47,080 nt of DNA from Synergistaceae bacterium (GCA_017444345.1 JAFSWW010000055.1:1-47080); one strand, 5' to 3'; positions 60 to 16,250 are shown, numbered from the stretch's first letter. Program-made: numbers and translations. The notes: generated by a model from the letters alone, not told the origin.

Positions 60-2219
60 CTAAAAATTTAGCAGGTCAGGAAATCCTACGTTATTGCTTA
101 AGTACTCTACAAAATCAGAAATTTTCTCGTCTTCTATAAATGGAGCTTGCAATCTTATCGGCAAAGGATAGCCCGAACTCCTGAATAACATATCGCCTTT
201 ACTTGTGAGTCTCTCTGCTCCTGAAGAGTCAATTATATTTTTTGAGTCTTCAAGTGTCTGAAGCGTAAAAGCTGCCCTTGCCGGAATATTTGATTTAATC
301 AGGCTCGTTATTACATCATTTGAAGGAGTCTGAGTCGCTAAAATCATATAAATTCCTGAAGCTCCGGCCTTCTGTGCTAATCTTGCTATTAAACTTTCTG
401 TCTCATTTCCGGCCGAATACATTAAATCAGCTAGTTCGTTTATTATAATCACTATACGGGGCAATTTCTCATTTTTGCGATTGTAGGCTGATAAATTTCT
501 TACTTTAGCGGCTGAAAATTTTTCCGTGCGTTCCTGCATTTCGTGTAAAGCCCAGTTAAGAGCCTTTAAAGCCGTCTTCACGTCATAAACAGGAGTCGCT
601 ATTAAATGTGAAAGATTTTCATAAATCGCAAAATCTGTCTGTCTTGTGTCAATCATTAATAATTTAAGCTCATCGGGACGGCAATTTGCGCACATTCCGA
701 GAATGCAGGAATTAATGAATACACTTTTGCCCGCTCCTGAACTCCCGGCGATTAAAATATGAGGCATTGACTCGAGTCCCTGTATAAAAATTTCTCCGTC
801 GATTTTACAGCCAAGCGGCATAATTAATTTTGCTCGTGAATTAATGAACTCTTCAGAATCTATAATATTTCTCAATGGAATAATTTTACGTTCGAGCGCA
901 GGAACTTCAACTCCAGCATAATGAGTCCCCCATATAGGAGCCTCGATTCTTACCGGCATTACAGCGAGGGACATGGCCAAGTCGTCAGCAAGTTCAAGAA
1001 TGCGGCTCACTTTTGTGCCGGGGGCGAGTTCTAATTGATATTGAGTAACTGAAGCACCGTTTATAATTTTTGCGACACTGGCATTGACTCCGAAATTCTT
1101 TAATGATGAAATTATTTGCTTGCCTTGTCTCTCTGAAGATTTTATTAAATCCTTGTCGAACTCAATAACTTGTTTAGCTCCGTAAATATCAATAGGAGGC
1201 GGAAAATTTGCTATATCTTCATGCTGTGATTGCTGGGAGTCGTTGACTTGTTCGGGCTTGTTTGCTTGTAACTCGTCAATAGCATCAATAGAAGGAAGGG
1301 GGCGGCGAAATTTTTTCATACGTTTAGCGGGCTCTCTTTTCTCAGGAGCTGATATTTTGCTTTCGTCAAGTGAAGTAATAAGAGTGCTGAACATATTAAT
1401 TGCGGCTTTCATGGGATCTTTTTCGGGTTCTGGCTGCTGTGTATCATCCTGCTTTAAATTAGGGTCGGGGATTCGCATTGACTCAATTTCTGCCTTAGCA
1501 TTAAGAGCCGACAATAACGGCATTGGATCAGAAAATTGTATAGCATCGTCATAAACTCTGAATTTAGGGGCGGGAATCTTCTGCGGAAATAAAATATTTT
1601 CGGGCTTGTCTTCTGTATATGGATCTCCGCTATAATTTTCGCGCGGTTTTCGTCTTGATCTGGGTCTAGTTTTAGATTCAGAGTCTAAATCAGAATCAGA
1701 GTCCGAGTCTGAATCTGAATCAGAAAAATTCATAACTGGTATAGAAATTTTCAGAATCCTAGAGCCGAACAGATAAGCCGACAAAATAAATGACGCTATA
1801 ACGAGTAAAAGTGTTATAAACGTTCCTATATTCAAGACAAAAAATTTAGCGAGTCCGCTGCCTAGTCCCCCCGGTTGAAATAGAGTCCAGTCAGAATCCC
1901 AGCCTGTTTCACGCAAAAATCCCAGCATAAACGAGAACGAAATATAAAGCTGAAGAGTGCCTAAAACTTGACGAGGTACACGAGGGACTCGAAATCTAAA
2001 TAATTTAGCGGCACATAAATATATCACGAAAAATAACGGGACAATGAACGCGCCTCCCCATGTTGAACGTAAATATCTGCCCCATTCGCGCCCGCCGTCG
2101 CCTGTAAATGAACTGTCGAATAATGCCAATATACAATAAAAGCAAAATAATATGATTCCAAATAATAATAATTCTCGTAAATCGCCTTTATTCTTGTTAG
2201 TCTTTCTTCTTCGCGGCAA
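60..2219 (-). CDS. ftsK: FtsK/SpoIIIE-type DNA translocase, divergent, no gamma domain
   Basis: This is a membrane-anchored ATPase of the FtsK family, which pumps chromosomal DNA through the division septum. Three to four hydrophobic segments lie within residues 17-155, followed by a low-complexity linker (a Ser-Asp run at about 166-180, then a charged stretch to about 340) and the motor domain (345-700). Walker A is AGSSGAGKS at 491-499. Walker B reads IIINELADL, with Asn594 in place of the usual Asp; Glu595 is kept. The protein stops just after the motor core at residue 719, so the C-terminal winged-helix gamma domain that reads KOPS and contacts XerD is absent. The usual DPK after the second strand is also altered (IDTRQTD). 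The start is TTG with a strong AGGAGG upstream. It is the last gene of the pilus/nuclease operon. It may be a specialised translocase rather than the cell's main FtsK, but this is inference. Confidence 0.85.
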   Translation of the reverse strand: MPRRRKTNKNKGDLRELLLFGIILFCFYCILALFDSSFTGDGGREWGRYLRSTWGGAFIVPLFFVIYLCAAKLFRFRVPRVPRQVLGTLQLYISFSFMLGFLRETGWDSDWTLFQPGGLGSGLAKFFVLNIGTFITLLLVIASFILSAYLFGSRILKISIPVMNFSDSDSDSDSDSDLDSESKTRPRSRRKPRENYSGDPYTEDKPENILFPQKIPAPKFRVYDDAIQFSDPMPLLSALNAKAEIESMRIPDPNLKQDDTQQPEPEKDPMKAAINMFSTLITSLDESKISAPEKREPAKRMKKFRRPLPSIDAIDELQANKPEQVNDSQQSQHEDIANFPPPIDIYGAKQVIEFDKDLIKSSERQGKQIISSLKNFGVNASVAKIINGASVTQYQLELAPGTKVSRILELADDLAMSLAVMPVRIEAPIWGTHYAGVEVPALERKIIPLRNIIDSEEFINSRAKLIMPLGCKIDGEIFIQGLESMPHILIAGSSGAGKSVFINSCILGMCANCRPDELKLLMIDTRQTDFAIYENLSHLIATPVYDVKTALKALNWALHEMQERTEKFSAAKVRNLSAYNRKNEKLPRIVIIINELADLMYSAGNETESLIARLAQKAGASGIYMILATQTPSNDVITSLIKSNIPARAAFTLQTLEDSKNIIDSSGAERLTSKGDMLFRSSGYPLPIRLQAPFIEDEKISDFVEYLSNNVGFPDLLNF
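1675..1721. repeat. GANTC hexamer array inside ftsK
   Basis: GANTC sites begin at 1675, 1681, 1693, 1699, 1705, 1711 and 1717, an exact 6-nt period with one unit (1687) mutated. On the coding strand this gives the alternating Ser-Asp run of the FtsK linker. Synonymous codons vary between units, so it is an old or selected array rather than a fresh slippage product. Confidence 0.85.
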
Positions 2220-2244
2220 AAAATTCCCCTCCTGATTTAATTAA

Positions 2245-3360
2245 TTATTTTTCCGAGCGTACCAGCCTGATATTTTGCTGATGTTCACGGAAAGATTTAG
2301 AAAAATAGTGATAGCCGTTCTTATTCGCTACATAATAATAATAATCGTTTACTTCAGGTTCGAGGGCTGCTCCCCATGCTGCTGTGCCGGGTATACAAAT
2401 GGGCTTAGGGGGTAATCCTGAAATCTTATAAGTATTATACGGCGAGTCAATCTCTAAATCTTTATTCAATACGCGCGTTAGTTTACGGCCAGCGAGTCTC
2501 CATGCATACACAACTGTAGCGTCAATTTGCAGGGCCATATTTGATTTTATTCTGTTATTAATTACTCCGGCAACTGTAGGACATTCTGAGTCATGCAAGA
2601 CTTCACGCTCAATCATTGAGGCAATTATAGCAGCGTCAACTAAATGGCTTGAATCTAATTTTTTTGCTTTGATTAAATCGCCGCGTAATTTCCACCATGC
2701 AAGTGATGCCGCCTGAACAGCTTCGTCGGGTGTTCGTTCGACTAATAAATAAGTCTCAGGCTCAAGAAATGCTATTCTCGTGTATTCGTCATCGGTGATA
2801 GATTTTATTAAGTCCTGCATTTCGTCCGGATAATTTGAGTCGTTAAGTAATGCCCGTGTGAAAGCTGCTATATTAAATCTGCTGTCTTGAGTCTCTAAAT
2901 TTTCAGCAAGCGCAAAAATATCAAGTCCCGGCAAAATTTGTAATTTCAGTAGTGCTGGCTTGGCCGTCTTTAACTGTCTTGCTAAGTTCCACGGATCTGA
3001 AGGCACAACGGAATAATTACCGGCTCTAATTTTCTTGTCAATGCCGAATTTTGCGAGCCAACGCGCTAATTGTGAAGGTGAACCGCTTTCAAGTGCTCCC
3101 TGAATCTCAAAAGCACGTGCTGCCTGTAAAGCTGTCATGCCGCTTGAAATAGTAACACTTATTGTATTGCCATCAGGAATAGGCAGTAAACCGTCCCAGA
3201 ATTTCAGCGGAGTCTTTGTGTAATATGAGAAAGCCATTCCCGCAATTGCTGCCCATGATAACATAAAGAATATAATAAATATCCCGTATAATTTAGGCTT
3301 TCTCCGGGTTAATTTGTGAGGTCTGACTCGTTCACGTGAATTATTATATTTTGTCTGCAA
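2245..3360 (-). CDS. mltG: Endolytic murein transglycosylase MltG (YceG family)
   Basis: MltG cleaves nascent glycan strands at the inner membrane and so sets peptidoglycan chain length. The protein has a basic N-terminus, one membrane anchor at about 24-46, a LysM-like region, and the YceG catalytic domain. The conserved block IASMIEREV carries the presumed catalytic Glu251, followed by AGVINNR and the SPYNTY...GLPPKPI...G region typical of the family. The length of 371 aa is normal. The start is TTG with AGGATG upstream; no ATG fits better. It lies 64 nt downstream of the pseudopilin and 25 nt upstream of ftsK, so the operon arrangement is likely. A local wall-cutting enzyme would suit a machine crossing the peptidoglycan, but MltG is also a housekeeping protein. 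Confidence 0.92.
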   Translation of the reverse strand: MQTKYNNSRERVRPHKLTRRKPKLYGIFIIFFMLSWAAIAGMAFSYYTKTPLKFWDGLLPIPDGNTISVTISSGMTALQAARAFEIQGALESGSPSQLARWLAKFGIDKKIRAGNYSVVPSDPWNLARQLKTAKPALLKLQILPGLDIFALAENLETQDSRFNIAAFTRALLNDSNYPDEMQDLIKSITDDEYTRIAFLEPETYLLVERTPDEAVQAASLAWWKLRGDLIKAKKLDSSHLVDAAIIASMIEREVLHDSECPTVAGVINNRIKSNMALQIDATVVYAWRLAGRKLTRVLNKDLEIDSPYNTYKISGLPPKPICIPGTAAWGAALEPEVNDYYYYVANKNGYHYFSKSFREHQQNIRLVRSEK

Positions 3361-3424
3361 GTTCTTAGCACATCCTGTTATTATTTTGCGTTTATTATAG
3401 CAATTAACATAAAAATTTTATTCT

Positions 3425-3877
3425 TTATTCGTCATCGTCATTATTAGCAGGATCAGCGGAAATTCTTGCACGGCCTCTTGTACTGAAGATTATATAATAC
3501 TTGCTTTCGTCTGTGCCTGTTATTGTGATAGTTCCCGATGGTCTGTAAATATTAGAGAGTGTATATACAAATTTTTTATTAGGTGAATATTTGCAGCCTG
3601 AAGTAGCATTTAAACTTTCATCAGGATTTATATCATATGACTCATTATTCCATTGCATTGTGATATTATCATCATTAAATTCAAAAGAAAACGCTTGATG
3701 AGTCCTATTTGCCGTCTGAGTTAATTTATTAATCCATTCTAGGACTCTTGCTGCCTCGCGTTCGGCCGTCTGATTTGCCATTTTAGTATTAATGAGAAAT
3801 ACTGCTATACCCGTTAAGATTGCACAAGCTGTGATTAATTCTGTTAGAGTGAAAGCAAGCCGCTTATTATTTTGCAT
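3425..3877 (-). CDS. Type II/IV pseudopilin
   Basis: A short protein (150 aa) with a type IV prepilin N-terminus: a basic leader, then the segment AFTLTELITACAIL with Thr-Leu-Thr-Glu around the cleavage site, and a hydrophobic helix to about residue 30. The residue before the mature Phe is Ala rather than the usual Gly, which may slow prepilin peptidase; Glu at mature position 5 is present. The rest is a polar globular region resembling GspH/FimT-type minor pseudopilins only in general shape. The start overlaps the end of the PilM-PilN gene by 11 nt and has a GGAG ribosome-binding site, indicating coupled translation. No prepilin peptidase, assembly ATPase (PilB) or platform protein (PilC) is in the window, so these would have to be elsewhere. 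Confidence 0.75.
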   Translation of the reverse strand: MQNNKRLAFTLTELITACAILTGIAVFLINTKMANQTAEREAARVLEWINKLTQTANRTHQAFSFEFNDDNITMQWNNESYDINPDESLNATSGCKYSPNKKFVYTLSNIYRPSGTITITGTDESKYYIIFSTRGRARISADPANNDDDE

Positions 3878-5249
3878 TATAGAAATCTCCTTTTATGTTA
3901 AGAATAAGGCTGAAATTTACGAGATTCTTGACTTGAGAAGTCCCGGGAATTACTACACTCTCAAATAGTCCGCTTTGTTTGAGTCCCTCGCTCAAAGATT
4001 CCAAAGACTCAGCATCTGAAGCCGTACCGGTTATATTTACGACAAATCCCGTGCCTCCTGCTGTAAAATCTGCATTATTTAATTTGATTCCCGTGCCTGC
4101 ATTTGCCTCGATTGAGTTTAAGACTTCTAAAATGGGAATATCACCGCGCAAAAAATTTAATACCTGCTCAGTTTGTGATTTATTTTGAGAGAGTGAAGTA
4201 TTATTTTTCATGAGTTCCATTCTATGTTCTTGAAGCTCGCTGATAAGTTCGCGGTTATGATCTATAGCACGTGTTAAAATTCTAGCTCGTGAGTTTGCAA
4301 ATAAAATAGTTCCCAGTGATAGAATCCCGAATCCCGACATCAATAAAATTAACGCGATTCTATTTGGATTCATTGAGTTTTTGCGTTTCTCGAATGCTAT
4401 ATATTCGGCCGGGCGCAAGTCCATTATATATTCGTCATCGGGGTCTCTCATTGCTAGTCCGCGTGCTTTGTAGAACTGGCTGGAAAAATTTACGATTTCT
4501 ATATCAGTCCCGGAAGTTATATTTACGTTTACGTCTGCAAGAATTAATTTACTGAGTTTGACGCGCTTATATTGAGTCTCAACAAATTGCAGAGTGTTGC
4601 GAATGTCCCCGAAACTATTAGAATTATCTGCAGTCCTGAAAAAAATCCCGTGCCCTTCCCAAGTCGTTACTATATTGTGTCGATCTGCAAAAATACAAAG
4701 TCCCTCGCGGTCTTCAGGAATTGCGCGTAACATGGCAAAATTTGCGGGCTCTATTGCTTTAACAATAATTCCTAATTTGTTGGCGATTTCTATTAATTGA
4801 TCTATATAATTTCTTCTGACAGCTGCAGCAAGAACGCTAACAGTATCGACAGTTCTATTTGATGTAGGAGTCTCTATTATAATCGTGTCAAAAATTGCTT
4901 CAGAACTCGGAAATGGGAAACTCTCTTCAAGATTTAGTGCTAACGAGCTTTTTATGTCATCTAGGCTCATTGTCGGGAAGTTCAGGGGCCTTATTATTAC
5001 ATCGCCTGAAGGAATGCCTATAACTACTGGGACGGAAATTTTGCCGGTTTCTTTTATTAGCTGCTTAAATCCGCGCTCTAACATTTTAAAATTTTTCATT
5101 GAGTTATTACTCATGCAGCCTTCTTCTAAGGGAATTCTAATATGTCTAATATCTTCGCCGTTCTCGTCAATTTCTATATAACCGAGTCCGTCATTTCTTA
5201 TAGCAATTCCCGCATTTATACTTGATTTAACAGGATGAAATAGCCGCAT
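3867..5249 (-). CDS. PilM-PilN fusion, pilus inner-membrane assembly protein
   Basis: The N-terminal part (about residues 10-285) is an actin-like PilM domain. Recognisable blocks include a GIPSGDVIIRPL strand, a LEESFPF block corresponding to the E-IPF motif, and a VLAAAVRRNYIDQ helix. A single membrane helix follows (298-318), then a coiled coil and a PilN-like periplasmic domain to the end. PilM and PilN are normally separate proteins that dock through a PilN N-terminal peptide; here they are one chain. I chose the ATG at 5249 because it overlaps the upstream stop as TAATG; a GTG at 5264 would add five residues but has poor ribosome-binding spacing. Its place between two pilin-like genes supports a role in a pilus or pseudopilus. 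Confidence 0.8.
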   Translation of the reverse strand: MRLFHPVKSSINAGIAIRNDGLGYIEIDENGEDIRHIRIPLEEGCMSNNSMKNFKMLERGFKQLIKETGKISVPVVIGIPSGDVIIRPLNFPTMSLDDIKSSLALNLEESFPFPSSEAIFDTIIIETPTSNRTVDTVSVLAAAVRRNYIDQLIEIANKLGIIVKAIEPANFAMLRAIPEDREGLCIFADRHNIVTTWEGHGIFFRTADNSNSFGDIRNTLQFVETQYKRVKLSKLILADVNVNITSGTDIEIVNFSSQFYKARGLAMRDPDDEYIMDLRPAEYIAFEKRKNSMNPNRIALILLMSGFGILSLGTILFANSRARILTRAIDHNRELISELQEHRMELMKNNTSLSQNKSQTEQVLNFLRGDIPILEVLNSIEANAGTGIKLNNADFTAGGTGFVVNITGTASDAESLESLSEGLKQSGLFESVVIPGTSQVKNLVNFSLILNIKGDFYNAK

Positions 5250-6622
5250 TATTCTCTGAACCACACTTCCTGATGGAAAATTGTAGTCTTGTCTACATCA
5301 TTGCTTACAACTTCCTCAATCATTAAACAATTATTATTATTATCAATTGGAGCATAAGCCCTGATTAAAAATTTTCCGGGCATGGCTGGGAATAGCTGTT
5401 CATACGGTTTTTGCAAGATATATTTTCCTTCATCTTTCAAAGACGTATCATATAATTTATAATCCAGATTATGTATATTCACTGTCATTTTGCCGTCTGA
5501 TGCAGATTTTGATAATATTCTTGTCCCCTCATCAGAATAAAATGACTTAGCTTTATTTGTTATTTCGTAATAATAGACATCGTTTAAATTATTAATTTGA
5601 GTTATGGATTTTTTTGCTTGTGAAATTAAATTCTCAAGGGCGAGTCTAACTCCCATGATTTCGCGGTCTTCAGTGAGGGACTCAAATGACTGCACGGAGA
5701 AAAAGAAAACTTGAGTCATTATTAATGCTGCTGTCAGAAAGAAAACTAACAGACTCACAAGTGAAGCCCCGCGCCGACTCCTAAAATTTATCGCTCTGTC
5801 TTTATCGCATGAATATTTATATTTGCATTTAGCACACAATTTTTTATCGCCTCTGATTTCAGGAAATTTTTTAGATTTTAGCGAAATAACTTGCCAGACT
5901 GTATTAAATAAATCCGGCAAATTTGATTTTATCATAGCAGCAACGCTCACAGAGTCAAAAATATCGGGCGATTTCTCATCAAGATAAATTATCTCAATTG
6001 AGGGCGTTATACCTGTCTTCTTAGCAATCAGCCAAGCATAAACGAGACTTTGAGCAAGCGGCACAGTTATATCACTCTTGTTATATGCTTTGAACTCGAA
6101 TAATCGGACTTCACCTTTATCGGGATTAAATAATAGTGCGTCATAGCGTCCCTTAATCGACAAATAGCCGTATTCAAGAGTATAAATGCCTTGTAAATCC
6201 TGCTCAGGTTTAATAAAAATTTTATCGTGTGAATTAATCCCGCTGAAAAATTCAGACATTGCTTTAACCCATATTTTTATGCCTGAAGCGACCGCTAATA
6301 ATTGATTCGCCGTAAATTTTTCTGAGTTCATAGCGGCAAACGGCAAGAAAATTTTTTCACGAATCAAATTCTCAAGTTTTCCATTTTCCGGACTGCTTTT
6401 AACTGCGTCAATAATCTCATCGTGTAAAGGACTCATATCATTATAAGCTGCCTCAAAAAATACCTGCGCTATATTCTTGTGAAAAATTGAGCCGTAATAC
6501 TCACTTCCGTTAATTCCGACAGTCCACGCTGATTTTTGCCTCCTGTGCAATTTATAAGCGAGCAGGGCCGGACATCTTTGACACAAAGCAATATCGCTAA
6601 CTGTAATATAACAAGTCTTCAT
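5249..6622 (-). CDS. Cas4/RecB-type nuclease fused in frame to a pilin-like segment
   Basis: Residues 1-275 form a PD-(D/E)XK nuclease of the Cas4/RecB type. His48, Asp161, Glu176-X-Lys178 and a QSLVY motif (191-195) make up an intact active site. Cys17 (or Cys14) with Cys263, Cys266 and Cys272 fits the 1+3 cysteine 4Fe-4S cluster of Cas4 and AddB. Without a stop, the chain continues into RSRRGASLVSLLVFF, a prepilin-like leader and membrane helix (about 281-306), and a polar C-terminal domain of about 150 residues. A stop in another frame lies at the junction, so an ancestral pair of genes may have been joined by a small indel, or the junction may be an assembly error. The gene starts 13 nt after the ATPase gene and ends in TAATG with pilM. 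No CRISPR array is nearby. Confidence 0.8.
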   Translation of the reverse strand: MKTCYITVSDIALCQRCPALLAYKLHRRQKSAWTVGINGSEYYGSIFHKNIAQVFFEAAYNDMSPLHDEIIDAVKSSPENGKLENLIREKIFLPFAAMNSEKFTANQLLAVASGIKIWVKAMSEFFSGINSHDKIFIKPEQDLQGIYTLEYGYLSIKGRYDALLFNPDKGEVRLFEFKAYNKSDITVPLAQSLVYAWLIAKKTGITPSIEIIYLDEKSPDIFDSVSVAAMIKSNLPDLFNTVWQVISLKSKKFPEIRGDKKLCAKCKYKYSCDKDRAINFRSRRGASLVSLLVFFLTAALIMTQVFFFSVQSFESLTEDREIMGVRLALENLISQAKKSITQINNLNDVYYYEITNKAKSFYSDEGTRILSKSASDGKMTVNIHNLDYKLYDTSLKDEGKYILQKPYEQLFPAMPGKFLIRAYAPIDNNNNCLMIEEVVSNDVDKTTIFHQEVWFRE

Positions 6623-6635
6623 TATATAAATATAC

Positions 6636-8675
6636 TTACTTTCTATCAGCCATAGTGATTAAAATATCGTCTCTTGAGTTAAACAGCCTGAATTTATTAT
6701 TACTCTGCAAAAAATTCATGAATTCGGGGCGTGAAATTACATGATCCCGGGCTGCTAAGAATTCAAGTGATTTATTTATGCTGATTAATTTCATGGGCGA
6801 CGCGTTTACTATTTCTATCAGGACACTCTCAAAACTTGCCGGGACTTGTGATTCTGTTTTCTCCGGAGTCTGAGTCTGACTCTGACTCTTAGGCAAATTA
6901 ATATTTAATAGATTCAAGCTCCTGACAAAAATTTTTATATCGTCTCTAGTTGCTGCCCTTGCGCCTGTTGACGGGTAAATATTTACATCGCCGTTATCGA
7001 CCCGGTTGATTAAAGCTGCCAGCCCGTACCATTCAACACGAGTAAATTTATTAATTAATAAAACTTTCCCGCCCGCGTCTTGAAATTCCTGTAAAAGTTT
7101 AGCTACCTGCTTCCAAGTCGATTTATGTAATTGAGCTTCAGAAATATAATAGCAAATATACTCGTTTAAAAAATTTATTCCCTGCTTAAGTGCGTTGGAG
7201 TGTGAAAGATTATTATTGCCGGTTACTATAAAGAAAGCAAATTTTTTATTGTTGAATTCAGCGAAAACCTTTAAATGTTTGCTTGACCCGCGCGAGACCT
7301 TGAAATTTTCATGTGAAGACAGCCAGACTCTAAGAGATAACGCTAATAAATCAGCATTTGGAGGCCAAGATTTTACATCACGTTTTATTTTATTGCATTC
7401 GTCATTGAATACGCCTTTAAGAGTCATAAAAATTTCTTTCTCGTATTTATTATTGCCGGGTAAATCTAATAAAATTTGCGTATCTTGCTGTGATTCTTGC
7501 GTTTGTGATTGAGTTTGAGTCTGATTCTGAGTCTGAGTTTGAGTCGAGTCTTGATTTGGTGCTTCGTCCCTAAAAATTGCCCGGTTAGCAAGTTCTATTA
7601 CCATGCGGGGCGAGAATCCATTTTTTAATTTTACGCGATCGATTAAAAACTGGTAAAATTTTTCTTGAGTCTCGCTGTCTTTATCACAGAAGGCAAATGC
7701 TATTCTCTCTCTTATTAATTGCTGTGCTTGACTAATTGAACATTCTCCCATTGTGATTTTATGATGTTCGAGTCTCTGATACACTGACGAATTTAAACAC
7801 GGTTTTATTTTCACGTTCCATATATCAGGCTTCATGAAACACAGCGGCAAAATTCCTACTAGATTATCACTCAATAAATGAATGATATTACCAAATGCAA
7901 AAATTAATTCCTGATTCCCATTCATTGAGTCTAACTGGTCAAAGCATACAATCATAGGCACATGAGCATAAGCAAGCAATAATCCCAGTGAAATTAAAAT
8001 TTTTTCGGCGGCACTCTCTTTTTTTGCGTCAGTCATTGAGTTAATATCACGTGAAGGCAGGCCAAGTTTTAAAGAGTCCTCCTCGTCGAGTCCTTCTCTG
8101 AGCCAGTCAATAATTAAAGCGCGCATATTTTCATCAGTTGTCCCGGCATATAGCAAAATACATTTAAGCACGTTTTTATCGAGTCCCGGCATATCACGAG
8201 CTAAATAAATTCGCATGTCAATCTTGTCAATACTCGCAAAACCGTCATTGATTCTGCGTTCCCTGTATGAGCTTAGTACTTCATTTACAAGCATATCAAA
8301 TTGAGATTTATTCGAGCTGTGAATTTGCAGTAAACTTATAAAAATTTCTGATAATAAATCCTGTGTTACGCTTTCAGGATCGCGGAATGCCCTGACAGTT
8401 ACGAAAATTGCAGGCCTTGAATTAGTCCTGAGTCTGCGCAAGATTCTTGTCAGCATGTGAGTCTTCCCTGAGCCTGATTCACCTAGTATTAACCCGGCAA
8501 GAGGCATAGAAGGCTCCCGGCGTTTATGTCTGATTAATTGCTCAATTTCTTCAGACGCTGATCTATTTAATTGCTGTAAATCAGGATTCATATTCTCCCA
8601 CGGCACCGGCGACGCTGAAGACTCAAATGGGTTATTTTCTCGGAGCTGCTTAAGAATCAAATCATTATCTGACAT
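6636..8675 (-). CDS. P-loop ATPase of unknown function with Q/T-rich linkers
   Basis: The N-terminal half is an AAA+/STAND-like ATPase: Walker A GESGSGKT (65-72), Walker B MIVCFDQLD (241-249), and a helical lid with an arginine-rich segment ending near residue 368. A low-complexity linker rich in Gln-Thr (372-400) leads to a second domain (about 405-590), which has a Phe-Ala-Glu-Phe strand and an FTRVEWYGLAALI block. A shorter Gln/Ser/Thr linker leads to a final small helical domain. The architecture recalls large ATPases in phage-defence and DNA-segregation loci, but I cannot assign it to a named family. It overlaps the winged-helix gene by 11 nt and precedes the nuclease gene by 13 nt, so the three products probably work together. 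Confidence 0.7.
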   Translation of the reverse strand: MSDNDLILKQLRENNPFESSASPVPWENMNPDLQQLNRSASEEIEQLIRHKRREPSMPLAGLILGESGSGKTHMLTRILRRLRTNSRPAIFVTVRAFRDPESVTQDLLSEIFISLLQIHSSNKSQFDMLVNEVLSSYRERRINDGFASIDKIDMRIYLARDMPGLDKNVLKCILLYAGTTDENMRALIIDWLREGLDEEDSLKLGLPSRDINSMTDAKKESAAEKILISLGLLLAYAHVPMIVCFDQLDSMNGNQELIFAFGNIIHLLSDNLVGILPLCFMKPDIWNVKIKPCLNSSVYQRLEHHKITMGECSISQAQQLIRERIAFAFCDKDSETQEKFYQFLIDRVKLKNGFSPRMVIELANRAIFRDEAPNQDSTQTQTQNQTQTQSQTQESQQDTQILLDLPGNNKYEKEIFMTLKGVFNDECNKIKRDVKSWPPNADLLALSLRVWLSSHENFKVSRGSSKHLKVFAEFNNKKFAFFIVTGNNNLSHSNALKQGINFLNEYICYYISEAQLHKSTWKQVAKLLQEFQDAGGKVLLINKFTRVEWYGLAALINRVDNGDVNIYPSTGARAATRDDIKIFVRSLNLLNINLPKSQSQTQTPEKTESQVPASFESVLIEIVNASPMKLISINKSLEFLAARDHVISRPEFMNFLQSNNKFRLFNSRDDILITMADRK
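6866..6888. repeat. GANTC hexamer array, second linker of the ATPase gene
   Basis: GASTC sites start at 6866, 6872, 6878 and 6884, exactly 6 nt apart. On the coding strand they encode Ser-Gln-Ser-Gln-Thr-Gln-Thr. Confidence 0.8.
7517..7550. repeat. GANTC hexamer array, first linker of the ATPase gene
   Basis: Sites at 7517, 7523, 7529 and 7541 keep a 6-nt phase (7535 is GAGTT), with one extra site at 7546. The coding strand gives the Thr-Gln run of the inter-domain linker. The same DNA hexamer gives Ser-Asp in FtsK because it is read in another frame. Confidence 0.8.
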
Positions 8676-9408
8676 TTCTTGTAACAGTCCCCATTCTGTA
8701 ATTATTCTCGTCCATAAAGCAATCTTTTATCTCATCCGGAGTCATCGTTGACTCGTCTGCAATGTGCATTTGTATTAATTCCCTGTCGCGTAACATAGTC
8801 AACATTGAGTCAAATAAATCGCGGGGCCAGTTTAATTTTTTGCGTAAATCACAAATTCTCACAAAGATTCGGCCGTTATCGAGTTCGTCAAATGCTTTCA
8901 TGAATTCTTCCCGGCTGTAATCGCTCGGGTGTGTATTAGTTCGTTCAGGTTCGTGGATATGTTCAAATTTTTGAGTCTGTATCTTCCCCGAATTATCAAT
9001 CAAATAAAATTTAGTATCTAAATTTTCATCCAGTCTGCTTTTAACTCGGCCTGACTCGACTAAACTATTTAATATTTTAGCGACATCAGCTTTTGAGAAC
9101 GGCAGAGAACGGGCTATTAATTTCGCACTCTTACCCTTAACGCTGTCCATTTCGGCAATTACTAAATCTTCAGGCTGACAGGGTACGAGAATATAAGTTA
9201 TCGGGCCTTTCTTGTGAAAAATAAATTTGTCCTTCACTTGAGGCTCTATTACTTTGCGGATGGCTGAAGCTGTGTGACAGTCTTCAATACCGATTAGCCG
9301 CCTGATTTCTGCTCCCATTGTTATAGACAGCTTACTGACCGTCATAAATGGGCGTTTGTTATCGTCTAATATTTCTTGAATAATTCCTGAAACGCTTTGA
9401 TTATTCAT
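8665..9408 (-). CDS. Multi-winged-helix protein, partner of the ATPase
   Basis: A 247-aa cytoplasmic protein that looks like three successive helix-turn-helix/winged-helix units: about 1-85, about 88-138 (with AKLIARSLPFSKADVAKIL), and about 165-247 (with FVRICDLRKKLNWPRDLFD and a closing DENNYRMGTVTRNVR). No catalytic motif is seen. The last unit resembles DNA-binding modules found beside P-loop ATPases, but I cannot name the family. It is the first gene of the seven-gene operon and overlaps the ATPase start, so a DNA-recognition or adaptor role for that ATPase is a reasonable inference. The ribosome-binding site is GGGAG about 12 nt upstream of ATG. No convincing promoter is visible in the short gap before it, so transcription might come through hicB. 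Confidence 0.6.
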   Translation of the reverse strand: MNNQSVSGIIQEILDDNKRPFMTVSKLSITMGAEIRRLIGIEDCHTASAIRKVIEPQVKDKFIFHKKGPITYILVPCQPEDLVIAEMDSVKGKSAKLIARSLPFSKADVAKILNSLVESGRVKSRLDENLDTKFYLIDNSGKIQTQKFEHIHEPERTNTHPSDYSREEFMKAFDELDNGRIFVRICDLRKKLNWPRDLFDSMLTMLRDRELIQMHIADESTMTPDEIKDCFMDENNYRMGTVTRNVR

Positions 9409-9443: not shown

Positions 9444-9607
9444 TCAAATCAGCCGGATTATTCCTATGTCAGATAAAATTTGAAGCAGAAGTCCTGAACT
9501 TATTTTTTTCCTGCGTGACTCCATTTTTGTCTGACTTTGTGAAATCCCTGCGATTCTGCAAGTTTTATATTTTCACGGGCTGTCAATGACGGTAATTTAG
9601 GACTCAT
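9444..9607 (-). pseudogene. hicA: Decayed hicA toxin gene
   Basis: The start ATG overlaps the hicB stop as TAATG, the usual coupled arrangement. The first 33 codons read as a HicA N-terminus (KLPSLTAREN, then a block with QGFHKVRQKWSH) and end at TAA. The frame that follows encodes a HicA-like C-terminus (GLLLQILSDIGI) ending at TGA (44-46 of the 9400s). The middle of the domain, about 20-25 residues including the core strand, is missing. One internal deletion plus a frameshift explains the pattern. The N-terminal part keeps the SH of the catalytic His region but cannot fold as a toxin. Confidence 0.75.
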
Positions 9608-9810
9608 TACATAGCAATTTTTTGAAGTCCTATAAACTCAATATCATCATTATAATCATAAAGTTGTATAGCTTCCTTCATGTTTGAGTCAAGTTCTTCA
9701 AGAGTCCTCGCCTGAGTATGACACCCGGGCAATGATGGAATGCTCCCGATATAATAGCCGTCTTTATCTCTTGTGATTGTCATAAAATATTCGATTCCAG
9801 TTTTCGGCAT
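9607..9810 (-). CDS. hicB: HicB-family antitoxin
   Basis: A short protein (67 aa) with the HicB N-terminal fold signature: YFMTITRDKDGYYIGSIPSL followed by PGCHTQARTLEELDSNMKEAIQLY. HicB neutralises the HicA mRNA interferase and often represses its own promoter. Small one-domain HicB proteins of this length are common, though the C-terminal DNA-binding domain of longer forms is absent. Its partner hicA, starting on the last base of this gene's stop, is broken, so the antitoxin is an orphan remnant or has been kept for another reason. A weak purine-rich ribosome-binding site (AAAGAG) lies about 8 nt upstream. Confidence 0.85.
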   Translation of the reverse strand: MPKTGIEYFMTITRDKDGYYIGSIPSLPGCHTQARTLEELDSNMKEAIQLYDYNDDIEFIGLQKIAM

Positions 9811-14900: not shown

Positions 14901-15347
14901 ATGAATATGACACTAGGCAAATTATTCGGGGATAAAGCAAAAAATTTCGCAGATCTTGAATTTCCTTCACACTTGGCCACCGACAGCAGAGACGTTAAAC
15001 AGGGCAGCGCGTTTATTGCAATTGAAGGCGAAAAAGTTGACGGACATAATTATATCCCCCAAGCAATCGAGAACGGGGCAGCATTAATTATCGCACGAAC
15101 TGGGAAGGCTCCGGAAAATTTAAATATTCCTGTTATTGAACTTGATAATCCGGAAAAAGATTTAGCGGGTGTTGCAGCAAAGAAATTAGCAGCTCATGAA
15201 TTACAGGAAGTTATAGGAGTTACAGGCAGCGTGGGCAAGACTACAACAAGAGCAGCATTACAAAAAGTTTTGAGTTCACGCTTTAAAGTTCATGCACCTG
15301 TCAGGAGCTTTAATACTTTAATCGTCTGTACTGCTACAATTATGTGA
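14901..15347 (+). CDS. murF: MurF, N-terminal part, ended by an in-frame TGA
   Basis: MurF joins D-Ala-D-Ala to the UDP-MurNAc-tripeptide. This part (148 codons) has the N-terminal domain (TDSRDVKQGSAFIA) and the P-loop GVTGSVGKTTTR, then reads SFNTLIVCTATIM and meets TGA at 15345-15347. The very next codon is ATG in the same frame, and the rest of MurF follows. In other MurF proteins this place holds Ser, Gly or Arg just before the MPxDTE segment (Bacillus has SMPEDTE), so only one codon is affected. TGA serves as an ordinary stop for neighbouring genes such as mraY. Possible causes are a sequencing or assembly error, a point mutation, or a real two-subunit MurF with coupled restart. Confidence 0.9.
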   Translation: MNMTLGKLFGDKAKNFADLEFPSHLATDSRDVKQGSAFIAIEGEKVDGHNYIPQAIENGAALIIARTGKAPENLNIPVIELDNPEKDLAGVAAKKLAAHELQEVIGVTGSVGKTTTRAALQKVLSSRFKVHAPVRSFNTLIVCTATIM

Positions 15348-16250
15348 ATGCCGCTCGATACTGAAATATTAATTCTTGAGTTCGGAGCAAACAAGCCCGG
15401 AGAAATTCGCGAACTTACTGACTACTTCCCGCCCACTTTGGCAGTATTGACAGCTATTGAGCCCGTCCATCTTGAAGGATTCAAGACTCTTAGCGGTGTA
15501 TTGCGTGAAAAGCTCGAAATAACTAACTCGCCATTAATTGAAAGCATTGTTTATAATAACGATAATGCATTACTCAGCGAACATTTTAAATATGTCGTTA
15601 AATCAATGGGAGTCGGCGAATGGAAGGACTCGGATTTTGTAATCAGCCTCGATAATTCAGAATATAATTTGCCTGCTATGTCATTTGTCTTAGCTCACAG
15701 ACCGACTCAGGAAGTCGCGCGCTTTACTGCAAATGTATGGGGCCGTCATAACGTAATGCCTTTAGCTTTGGCCGCTTCAGTGGGTCATGAGTTAGGCATA
15801 AGATTACAGGACTCATCGGACGCGTTAAAAGATTTTGAGGCTTTATCAGGGCGGGGCAGAATAATATTCCCTGAAGAGAATAAATTTATAGTCGACGACG
15901 CATATAACGCGAACCCGGCATCAATGAAGGCATCACTTGAAACTTTTTCACGAGTCCAGACTTCCGGAAAAATAGCAGTGTTAGGCGACATGTTAGAACT
16001 CGGCGAAGATAAAATTTATTTTCACAAGGAACTAGAGCCGTTATTAGATGGGCTTGATAAAGTTATTCTTGTCGGAAGTTTATGGCGTGAGGCTTTGCAG
16101 GATAATGAGAGATATATTTTTGTACCTGACTGGCAGGGGGGCTTAAATGAATTAAGAAATCTCATGAATAATCTTGATTGGCACGGAATATTAATAAAGG
16201 CCTCTCAAAGTGTCGGACTTAGCAATATAGTAAAGGAAATCACAGCATGA
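15348..16250 (+). CDS. murF: MurF, C-terminal part, same frame as the N-terminal part
   Basis: This carries the rest of the central domain (ILEFGANKPGEIRELT, HLEGF, NNDN) and the C-terminal domain with the signature DDAYNANPASM, GDMLELG and ILIKASQSVGLSNIV. All 300 codons continue the frame of the upstream part, and sequence conservation resumes immediately after the TGA. Nothing else is broken, so the break looks recent or artefactual. If the ATG directly after TGA is used, ribosomes finishing the first part could restart here without a separate ribosome-binding site. Its own stop overlaps the mraY start as ATGA, so translation of mraY probably depends on it. Confidence 0.9.
   Translation: MPLDTEILILEFGANKPGEIRELTDYFPPTLAVLTAIEPVHLEGFKTLSGVLREKLEITNSPLIESIVYNNDNALLSEHFKYVVKSMGVGEWKDSDFVISLDNSEYNLPAMSFVLAHRPTQEVARFTANVWGRHNVMPLALAASVGHELGIRLQDSSDALKDFEALSGRGRIIFPEENKFIVDDAYNANPASMKASLETFSRVQTSGKIAVLGDMLELGEDKIYFHKELEPLLDGLDKVILVGSLWREALQDNERYIFVPDWQGGLNELRNLMNNLDWHGILIKASQSVGLSNIVKEITA

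What the first reader, a model, noticed from the sequence alone, without database searches (positions are those of the whole stretch)
60..9408. Candidate undescribed system: DNA-handling enzymes embedded in a pseudopilus operon
Seven genes on one strand, most overlapping or within 25 nt (largest gap 64 nt), join a winged-helix protein, a P-loop ATPase, a Cas4/RecB-type nuclease fused to a pilin-like segment, a PilM-PilN fusion, a pseudopilin, MltG and an odd FtsK. This could be a DNA uptake or export machine with built-in processing, or a defence module that uses the envelope. The individual families are known; the combination is not one I recognise.
Basis: partly seen in the sequence, partly recalled or inferred. 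Interest (0 to 1): 0.85.

Follow-up and report, generated by a model that had tools for sequence, protein, structure and literature searches.

The report
Predicted DNA-capture nuclease joined to pilus genes
A three-gene DNA-binding, ATPase and nuclease module, a variant of a predicted but untested class of anti-invader "FtsK capture" systems, has lost its own DNA pump in this gut-bacterium genus and now shares one gene row with pilus genes and the cell-division pump FtsK, which itself has lost its chromosome-unlinking part.

Summary
Seven tightly packed minus-strand genes (60-9408) are conserved across the genus; three independent units have been joined.

(1) A triple winged-helix protein, an Orc/Cdc6-type AAA+ ATPase and a Cas4/RecB-like nuclease with all catalytic residues and its cysteines kept. 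In sister genera the nuclease is fused to its own FtsK motor; in one genus (g7) that motor is a fresh pseudogene. Relatives occur in archaea and several other bacterial phyla. The architecture matches the "Orc/CDC6 HerA/FtsK capture systems" that Rakesh et al. 2024 predicted to be anti-invader systems, so the core is not undescribed, only untested.

(2) Type IV pilus genes (pilin, PilM-PilN, pseudopilin), found without the module in other genomes.

(3) MltG and the ordinary cell FtsK, neighbours throughout much of the family.

New here: a motor-less variant whose nuclease is followed directly by a pilin gene in 26 of 26 loci (one ORF in the window, with a prepilin-peptidase-like site at the joint, so it is probably cut apart). 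It lies in a genus that has lost both FtsK-gamma and XerC/XerD in 38 of 38 genomes. Whether module, pilus and FtsK cooperate is open. The module stands apart from FtsK in 5 of 21 decidable species, so I favour operon merging over one machine.

The parts
8665..9408 (-). Triple winged-helix (3x wHTH) protein, 247 aa; wHTH units about aa 5-75, 79-137 and 165-245
   Evidence: AlphaFold2 model, mean pLDDT 87.9, three helix-helix-helix-wing units; Foldseek hits are winged-helix proteins; co-conserved with the ATPase
6636..8675 (-). Orc/Cdc6-type AAA+ ATPase, 679 aa
   Evidence: Walker A GESGSGKT and Walker B CFDQLD near-invariant in 40 relatives; AlphaFold2 model pLDDT 86.5 whose best PDB matches are ORC subunits and CDC6
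7572..8564 (-). AAA+ core of the ATPase (aa 38-368)
6996..7355 (-). ATPase aa 441-560: REase-like a-b-b-b-a-b order without a conserved D...ExK, read here as an inactive REase domain
   Evidence: secondary structure of the model; no conserved catalytic residues in the alignment; fold not confirmed as a separate domain
6651..6839 (-). C-terminal winged helix of the ATPase (aa 613-675)
5789..6622 (-). Cas4/RecB-like PD-(D/E)XK nuclease (aa 1-278 of the fusion): H48, D161, E176-x-K178, Q191xxxY195, Cys14/17/263/266/272
   Evidence: Pfam PF12705 and Cas4 models; catalytic residues invariant in 36 relatives, cysteines in nearly all
5249..5788 (-). Pilin-like half of the fusion (aa 279-457)
   Evidence: homologous to a stand-alone pilin gene in congeners and in G099 and G037
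5765..5770 (-). Putative prepilin-peptidase cleavage position, SRRG285 | A286SLVS, which would release the nuclease from the pilin
   Evidence: sequence at the joint; the same basic-G-[A/S/V]S-hydrophobic pattern in nearly all congeners, fused or split; a prepilin peptidase gene exists in G000; inference
3867..5264 (-). PilM-PilN fusion, 465 aa
   Evidence: Pfam PF11104 and PF05137; separate PilM and PilN in G099
3425..3877 (-). Pseudopilin, 150 aa (FTLTEL N-terminus)
   Evidence: NCBIfam ComGD/ComGE, sub-threshold; duplicated in some congeners
2245..3360 (-). MltG endolytic transglycosylase, 371 aa
   Evidence: PF02618, TIGR00247 above cut-off; adjacent to the cell FtsK across much of the family
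60..2219 (-). Cell-division DNA translocase FtsK without gamma domain, 719 aa; the only FtsK/SpoIIIE-family match in the genome
   Evidence: PF17854 and PF01580; groups with canonical family FtsK; PF09397 absent; single PF01580 match in G000

Best explanation
The finding is a merged transcription unit. Its first three genes are a motor-less variant of an Orc/Cdc6-type HerA/FtsK capture module, a predicted anti-invader nuclease system. Its last genes are ordinary type IV pilus genes, MltG and the cell FtsK. SHOWN: domain content, gene order, retention of catalytic residues, the nuclease-FtsK fusion in sister genera, decay of that motor in g7, and absence of any second FtsK-type motor in the window's genome. 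INFERRED: the triple winged-helix protein recognises DNA (a site, structure or modification state). It loads the Orc/Cdc6 ATPase, whose inactive REase and wHTH tail hold the duplex. The complex delivers the FeS-type Cas4/RecB-like nuclease to that DNA, which is degraded. In relatives a fused FtsK motor pumps the DNA to the nuclease. Here the motor is gone, so either ATPase plus nuclease suffice on DNA ends or passing forks, or the resident FtsK, encoded at the end of the same unit, supplies the pumping. The nuclease is made as the cytoplasmic N-terminus of a pilin precursor and is probably released by prepilin peptidase.
For: Nuclease-FtsK alpha/motor fusions next to WH and ATPase in 8 loci of 5 sister genera, and ATPase-FtsK in G099; fused motors form one clade apart from cell FtsK (100/100). 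Motor pseudogene right behind the nuclease in G040, pieces 72-96% identical to intact motors. Same three-part order in Methanospirillum, Desulfobacterales, Planctomycetes and Acidobacteria; SAR324 has the ATPase-FtsK form. The N-terminal domain of those FtsK fusions keeps H, D, ExK, QxxxY and aligns with our nuclease at 96.6% probability. ATPase model matches ORC/CDC6; WH model is three wHTH. Architecture as described in PMC10853773. Purifying selection, dN/dS 0.13-0.16 for the three genes against the congener G117. Pilus genes and MltG-FtsK exist without the module.
Against: No activity of a capture system of this Orc/Cdc6 class is reported in the papers read, so 'anti-invader' rests on prediction. 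The family tree and high retention in this genus (34 of 38 genomes) look more vertical and core-like than a typical defence island. The key motor is missing here. The inactive-REase reading rests on secondary-structure order only.
Confidence: 0.62

Rival explanations
1. Domesticated chromosome-maintenance role: after this genus lost XerC/XerD and FtsK-gamma, the module became a partner of the cell FtsK at the septum, cutting or processing unresolved or trapped chromosome DNA.
For: FtsK-gamma absent in 38/38 genomes of the genus and XerC/D-strength recombinases absent in 38/38 (best E 2e-29 against about 1e-42 to 1e-51 elsewhere); g7, the other lineage lacking both, also has a motor-less module with stand-alone nuclease. 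Module and FtsK in one unit in 16 of 21 decidable loci. High retention and purifying selection.
Against: g3 (G028) has a motor-less module but keeps Xer and gamma. FtsK is unlinked in G045, G093, G094, G027 and G055 and in g7. G037 lacks Xer, gamma and an intact module. Only two co-loss events.
Confidence: 0.13
2. Interception of DNA entering by the pilus: nuclease, ATPase and WH act with the type IV pilus/competence machinery to degrade or process incoming transforming DNA.
For: Pilin gene directly after the nuclease in 26 of 26 loci, even where the other pilus genes are elsewhere (G055); PilB/PilT-type ATPases, secretins, prepilin peptidase and ComEC in the genome.
Against: In sister genera the same module has no pilus neighbours. 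The pilin is part of the pilus cluster in G099, without the module. The fusion places the nuclease in the cytoplasm and a prepilin-peptidase-like site separates the two; fused and split forms interchange (5 changes among 24 rows), so the fusion itself seems dispensable.
Confidence: 0.1
3. Accidental operon read-through: the three units are merely neighbours near the dcw cluster, with no functional link, and the module works alone.
For: Units separate in 5 species and in other genera; the link sites differ.
Against: Overlapping reading frames and absence of minus-strand terminator-like sites predict co-expression; conserved across most of the genus.
Confidence: 0.15

Closest known systems
Orc/CDC6-type HerA/FtsK capture systems (Rakesh, Aravind & Krishnan 2024, PMC10853773)
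   Same: Orc/Cdc6 AAA+ ATPase with REase-like insert before a C-terminal wHTH, active PD-(D/E)XK nuclease, multi-wHTH protein, and in sister genera an FtsK alpha plus motor domain
   Different: In this genus the HerA/FtsK motor is lost, the nuclease is a Cas4-like type with cysteines and is fused or adjacent to a pilin, and the module sits ahead of the pilus-MltG-FtsK genes
BREX-Related Capture (BRC) systems (PMC12839542)
   Same: ORC/Cdc6 AAA+ ATPase, tripartite DNA-binding protein and HerA/FtsK logic
   Different: BRC has PglZ, DUF6079, a STAND NTPase and DUF4007; none was recognised next to our module
SspFGH and DndFGH restriction modules (PMC8092258, PMC10853773)
   Same: Three-gene logic: P-loop protein, DNA-binding protein, FtsK-like translocase with nuclease
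   Different: PADLOC SspH hits of our motors are not specific, canonical FtsK scores the same; no sulfur-modification genes recognised nearby
HerA-NurA DNA-end resection pair of archaea
   Same: Hexameric FtsK-superfamily pump coupled to a nuclease (from general knowledge)
   Different: NurA is not a Cas4-type nuclease; there is no Orc/Cdc6 or triple wHTH partner

Membership tests
Orc/CDC6 HerA/FtsK capture system | Orc/Cdc6-family AAA+ ATPase | tested here: met
   Foldseek best matches ORC/CDC6 (best E 4.7e-6); Walker motifs invariant
Orc/CDC6 HerA/FtsK capture system | Inactive REase inserted between AAA+ core and C-terminal wHTH | tested here: inconclusive
   Model shows a-b-b-b-a-b then wHTH at the right place and no conserved D/ExK; the domain was not searched on its own
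Orc/CDC6 HerA/FtsK capture system | Active REase-type nuclease | tested here: met
   PF12705 match; H, D, ExK, QxxxY invariant in 36 sequences; activity not tested
Orc/CDC6 HerA/FtsK capture system | HerA/FtsK translocase as part of the system | tested here: not met
   No module motor in the window or genome; present in sister genera and a pseudogene in g7. Hence filed as a derived motor-less variant of the kind, not a standard member
[quoted passage not shown]
   Three wHTH in the model; kinship to DndG/SspB/FokI not shown
Orc/CDC6 HerA/FtsK capture system | Anti-invader activity | not testable with these tools
   Predicted only in the literature read
Type IV pilus / competence machine | Pilins, PilM, PilN, extension ATPase, prepilin peptidase, secretin, ComEC | tested here: met
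   First three in the window, the rest elsewhere in the genome; a PilC homologue was not searched
SspFGH / DndFGH | Specific SspH/DndH homology and adjacent sulfur-modification genes | tested here: not met
   SspH hits equal those of canonical FtsK; no such genes recognised in the neighbourhoods
CRISPR-associated Cas4 | Neighbouring cas1/cas2 and a CRISPR array | not tested
   Cas genes and arrays were not searched; Cas4 scores are below the curated cut-offs

The most novel reading that the evidence does not exclude
A predicted anti-invader capture module was domesticated in a genus that has dispensed with XerCD-dif and FtsK-gamma. It surrendered its own pump and now works with the cell-division FtsK encoded in the same unit to clear unresolved or trapped DNA at the septum.
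Probability: 0.12. Interest if true: 0.88.

Novelty: new variant of a known kind. Interest (0 to 1): 0.56.

Why it matters
It gives a natural series (motor fused to the nuclease, fused to the ATPase, decaying, lost) for a predicted but untested class of DNA-capture systems, and so shows which parts are dispensable. It also flags a bacterial genus, and one further lineage, without XerCD and without FtsK-gamma. There one can ask how chromosome dimers are handled and whether a nuclease module next to FtsK took part.

Tried and rejected
PADLOC SspH, MADS and HerA hits of the fused motor: rejected as generic, because canonical FtsK scores as high. BrxC, Avs2 and KAP hits of WH and ATPase: weak, P-loop or HTH level only. 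Sequence searches of the PDB with ATPase and WH profiles: nothing significant. Phage origin: no relative in viral contigs; cyanobacterial plasmids carry an exonuclease-ATPase relative. Window FtsK as the module's own motor released from a fusion: rejected by the tree and by MltG synteny. A sequencing artefact behind the nuclease-pilin fusion: rejected, 16 of 24 scored congeners including close relatives have it. Promoter scan: uninformative.

Full report
OBSERVATION. The seven minus-strand genes exist as described: WH 8665-9408, ATPase 6636-8675, nuclease-pilin 5249-6622, PilM-PilN 3867-5264, pseudopilin 3425-3877, MltG 2245-3360, FtsK 60-2219. Frames overlap or are close, with a largest gap of 64 nt. 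The window begins at the contig start, so anything downstream of FtsK is not visible here. Pfam and NCBIfam give FtsK alpha plus motor, MltG above cut-off, PilM plus PilN, ComGD/ComGE-like pseudopilin, PD-(D/E)XK/Cas4-like nuclease and an AAA ATPase; the WH protein has no convincing family.

CONSERVATION. Among 151 Synergistota genomes the ATPase is found only in the window's family: 34 of 38 genomes of the window's genus (g1) plus a fragment in G037, and 14 genomes of ten other genera. The nuclease follows much the same pattern. I fetched 40 regions around the module and mapped them. In g1, WH-ATPase-nuclease-pilin is kept in 26 of 26 loci. The row continues to FtsK in 16, is visibly broken before FtsK in 5 (G045, G093, G094, G027, G055) and is cut by contig ends in 5.

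THREE UNITS. In five other genera (8 loci) the row has three genes: WH, ATPase, and the nuclease fused to an FtsK alpha/motor domain. In G099 the ATPase is fused to the motor and no nuclease was found. Those genomes for which the canonical FtsK was fetched carry it separately, about 970 aa, beside MltG. A tree of motor domains puts the window FtsK with the canonical cell FtsKs and the fused motors in one distant clade (100/100). So MltG-FtsK is the ordinary cell pair. The pilus genes occur without the module in G099 (about 60 kb away) and in G037, where they precede MltG-FtsK. The module and the pilus/MltG/FtsK genes are therefore separable units that were joined in g1, mostly beside the rsmH-ftsL-ftsI cluster.

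THE MOTOR WAS LOST. Nuclease-FtsK fusions in Methanospirillum, Desulfobacterales, Planctomycetes and Acidobacteria suggest that the motor is ancestral. In G040 (g7) a broken motor lies right behind the nuclease, with pieces 72-96% identical to intact motors: decay caught in the act. In the window's genome the cell FtsK is the only FtsK/SpoIIIE match. The remaining genes are not decaying. Catalytic residues of nuclease and ATPase are invariant or nearly so, and dN/dS is 0.145, 0.163 and 0.127 for WH, ATPase and nuclease against the congener G117, similar to FtsK at 0.166.

WHAT THE PARTS ARE. The WH protein is predicted as three winged helices in a row (pLDDT 87.9). The ATPase model (pLDDT 86.5) matches ORC subunits and CDC6 best. 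Its C-terminal part shows an a-b-b-b-a-b order without conserved nuclease residues, then a winged helix; I read this as an inactive REase domain plus wHTH, but did not confirm the fold separately. The nuclease carries H, D, ExK, QxxxY and cysteines in the Cas4/AddB pattern.

KNOWN KIND. Rakesh, Aravind and Krishnan 2024 (PMC10853773) describe, from genomes alone, "HerA/FtsK capture systems" with these parts: Orc/CDC6 ATPase, inactive REase before a C-terminal wHTH, active REase, HerA/FtsK (some with FtsK alpha) and, in a subset, a protein of 2-4 wHTH. A relative, BRC, was added in 2026 (PMC12839542). The papers propose that the system locates invading DNA during segregation, transfer or packaging and pumps it to the nuclease; I found no experiment on this class. 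The module is thus not undescribed. Because the window copy lacks the HerA/FtsK part, I file it as a motor-less variant of the kind, not as a standard member.

THE PILIN FUSION. One ORF in 16 and two genes in 8 of the scored congeners, with 5 changes on the ATPase tree. The joint has a basic-G-[A/S/V]S-hydrophobic pattern like a prepilin-peptidase site, lacking the usual Glu at +5, and a prepilin peptidase gene is present. A nuclease placed before a pilin's membrane helix would lie in the cytoplasm and could be freed by processing. These points are inference. In G055 the pilin stays with the nuclease although the rest of the pilus row is not next to it, so a link with the pilin itself cannot be dismissed.

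XER AND GAMMA. FtsK-gamma (PF09397) is absent in 38 of 38 g1 genomes and in G040, and present in 30 of 33 other family members tested; the other two lacking it, G090 and G148, are incomplete genomes. XerC/XerD-strength tyrosine recombinases (E about 1e-42 or better) are absent in the same 38 and in G040; apart from G040, only the incomplete G090 and G129 lack them among the others. This co-loss is the most unexpected by-product. It makes a chromosome-related role of the neighbouring nuclease module worth testing, but G028 (motor-less module, Xer and gamma kept), the unlinked species and G037 (all lost) argue against a simple rule.

VERDICT. Observation confirmed, interpretation partly supported, novelty: new variant of a known (predicted) kind. 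Most likely mechanism: WH-guided Orc/Cdc6 ATPase bringing a Cas4-like nuclease to target DNA, with the pump lost or supplied by the resident FtsK. Steps beyond sequence are unproven.

Noticed in passing
whole genus g1 (G000, G008, G014 and others) and G040: Co-loss of XerC/XerD recombinases and the FtsK gamma domain, i.e. the standard chromosome dimer resolution system, in a whole genus and in one further lineage.
   Followed up: partly
L073:6900-7500 (G040): Frameshifted, deleted remnant of the FtsK motor directly behind the nuclease, up to 96% identical to intact motors of other genera.
   Followed up: yes
L180:7536-10025 and cyanobacterial plasmids such as AP018209.1, NZ_CP050441.1: Cyanobacterial relatives have a DnaQ/RNase T-like exonuclease fused in front of the ATPase and no FtsK neighbour recognised: a nuclease swap on the same ATPase, also on plasmids.
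   Followed up: partly
L224:7920-11393 (Myxococcus): 1157-aa protein joining the ATPase to a HerA/TraD-like translocase, next to a 347-aa protein of unknown family.
   Followed up: no
window 9500-9810, minus strand: HicB-like antitoxin ORF (67 aa) followed by a short 35-aa HicA-like fragment between the WH gene and rsmH; looks like a broken HicAB pair (from sequence and general knowledge).
   Followed up: no
window 14901-16250, plus strand: The Mur-ligase-like gene after murE appears as two abutting ORFs (148 and 300 aa), possibly a frameshift or an assembly error.
   Followed up: no
L088:9672-11049 (G032): The nuclease gene is interrupted near residue 217, so the module may be decaying in this species.
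   Followed up: no
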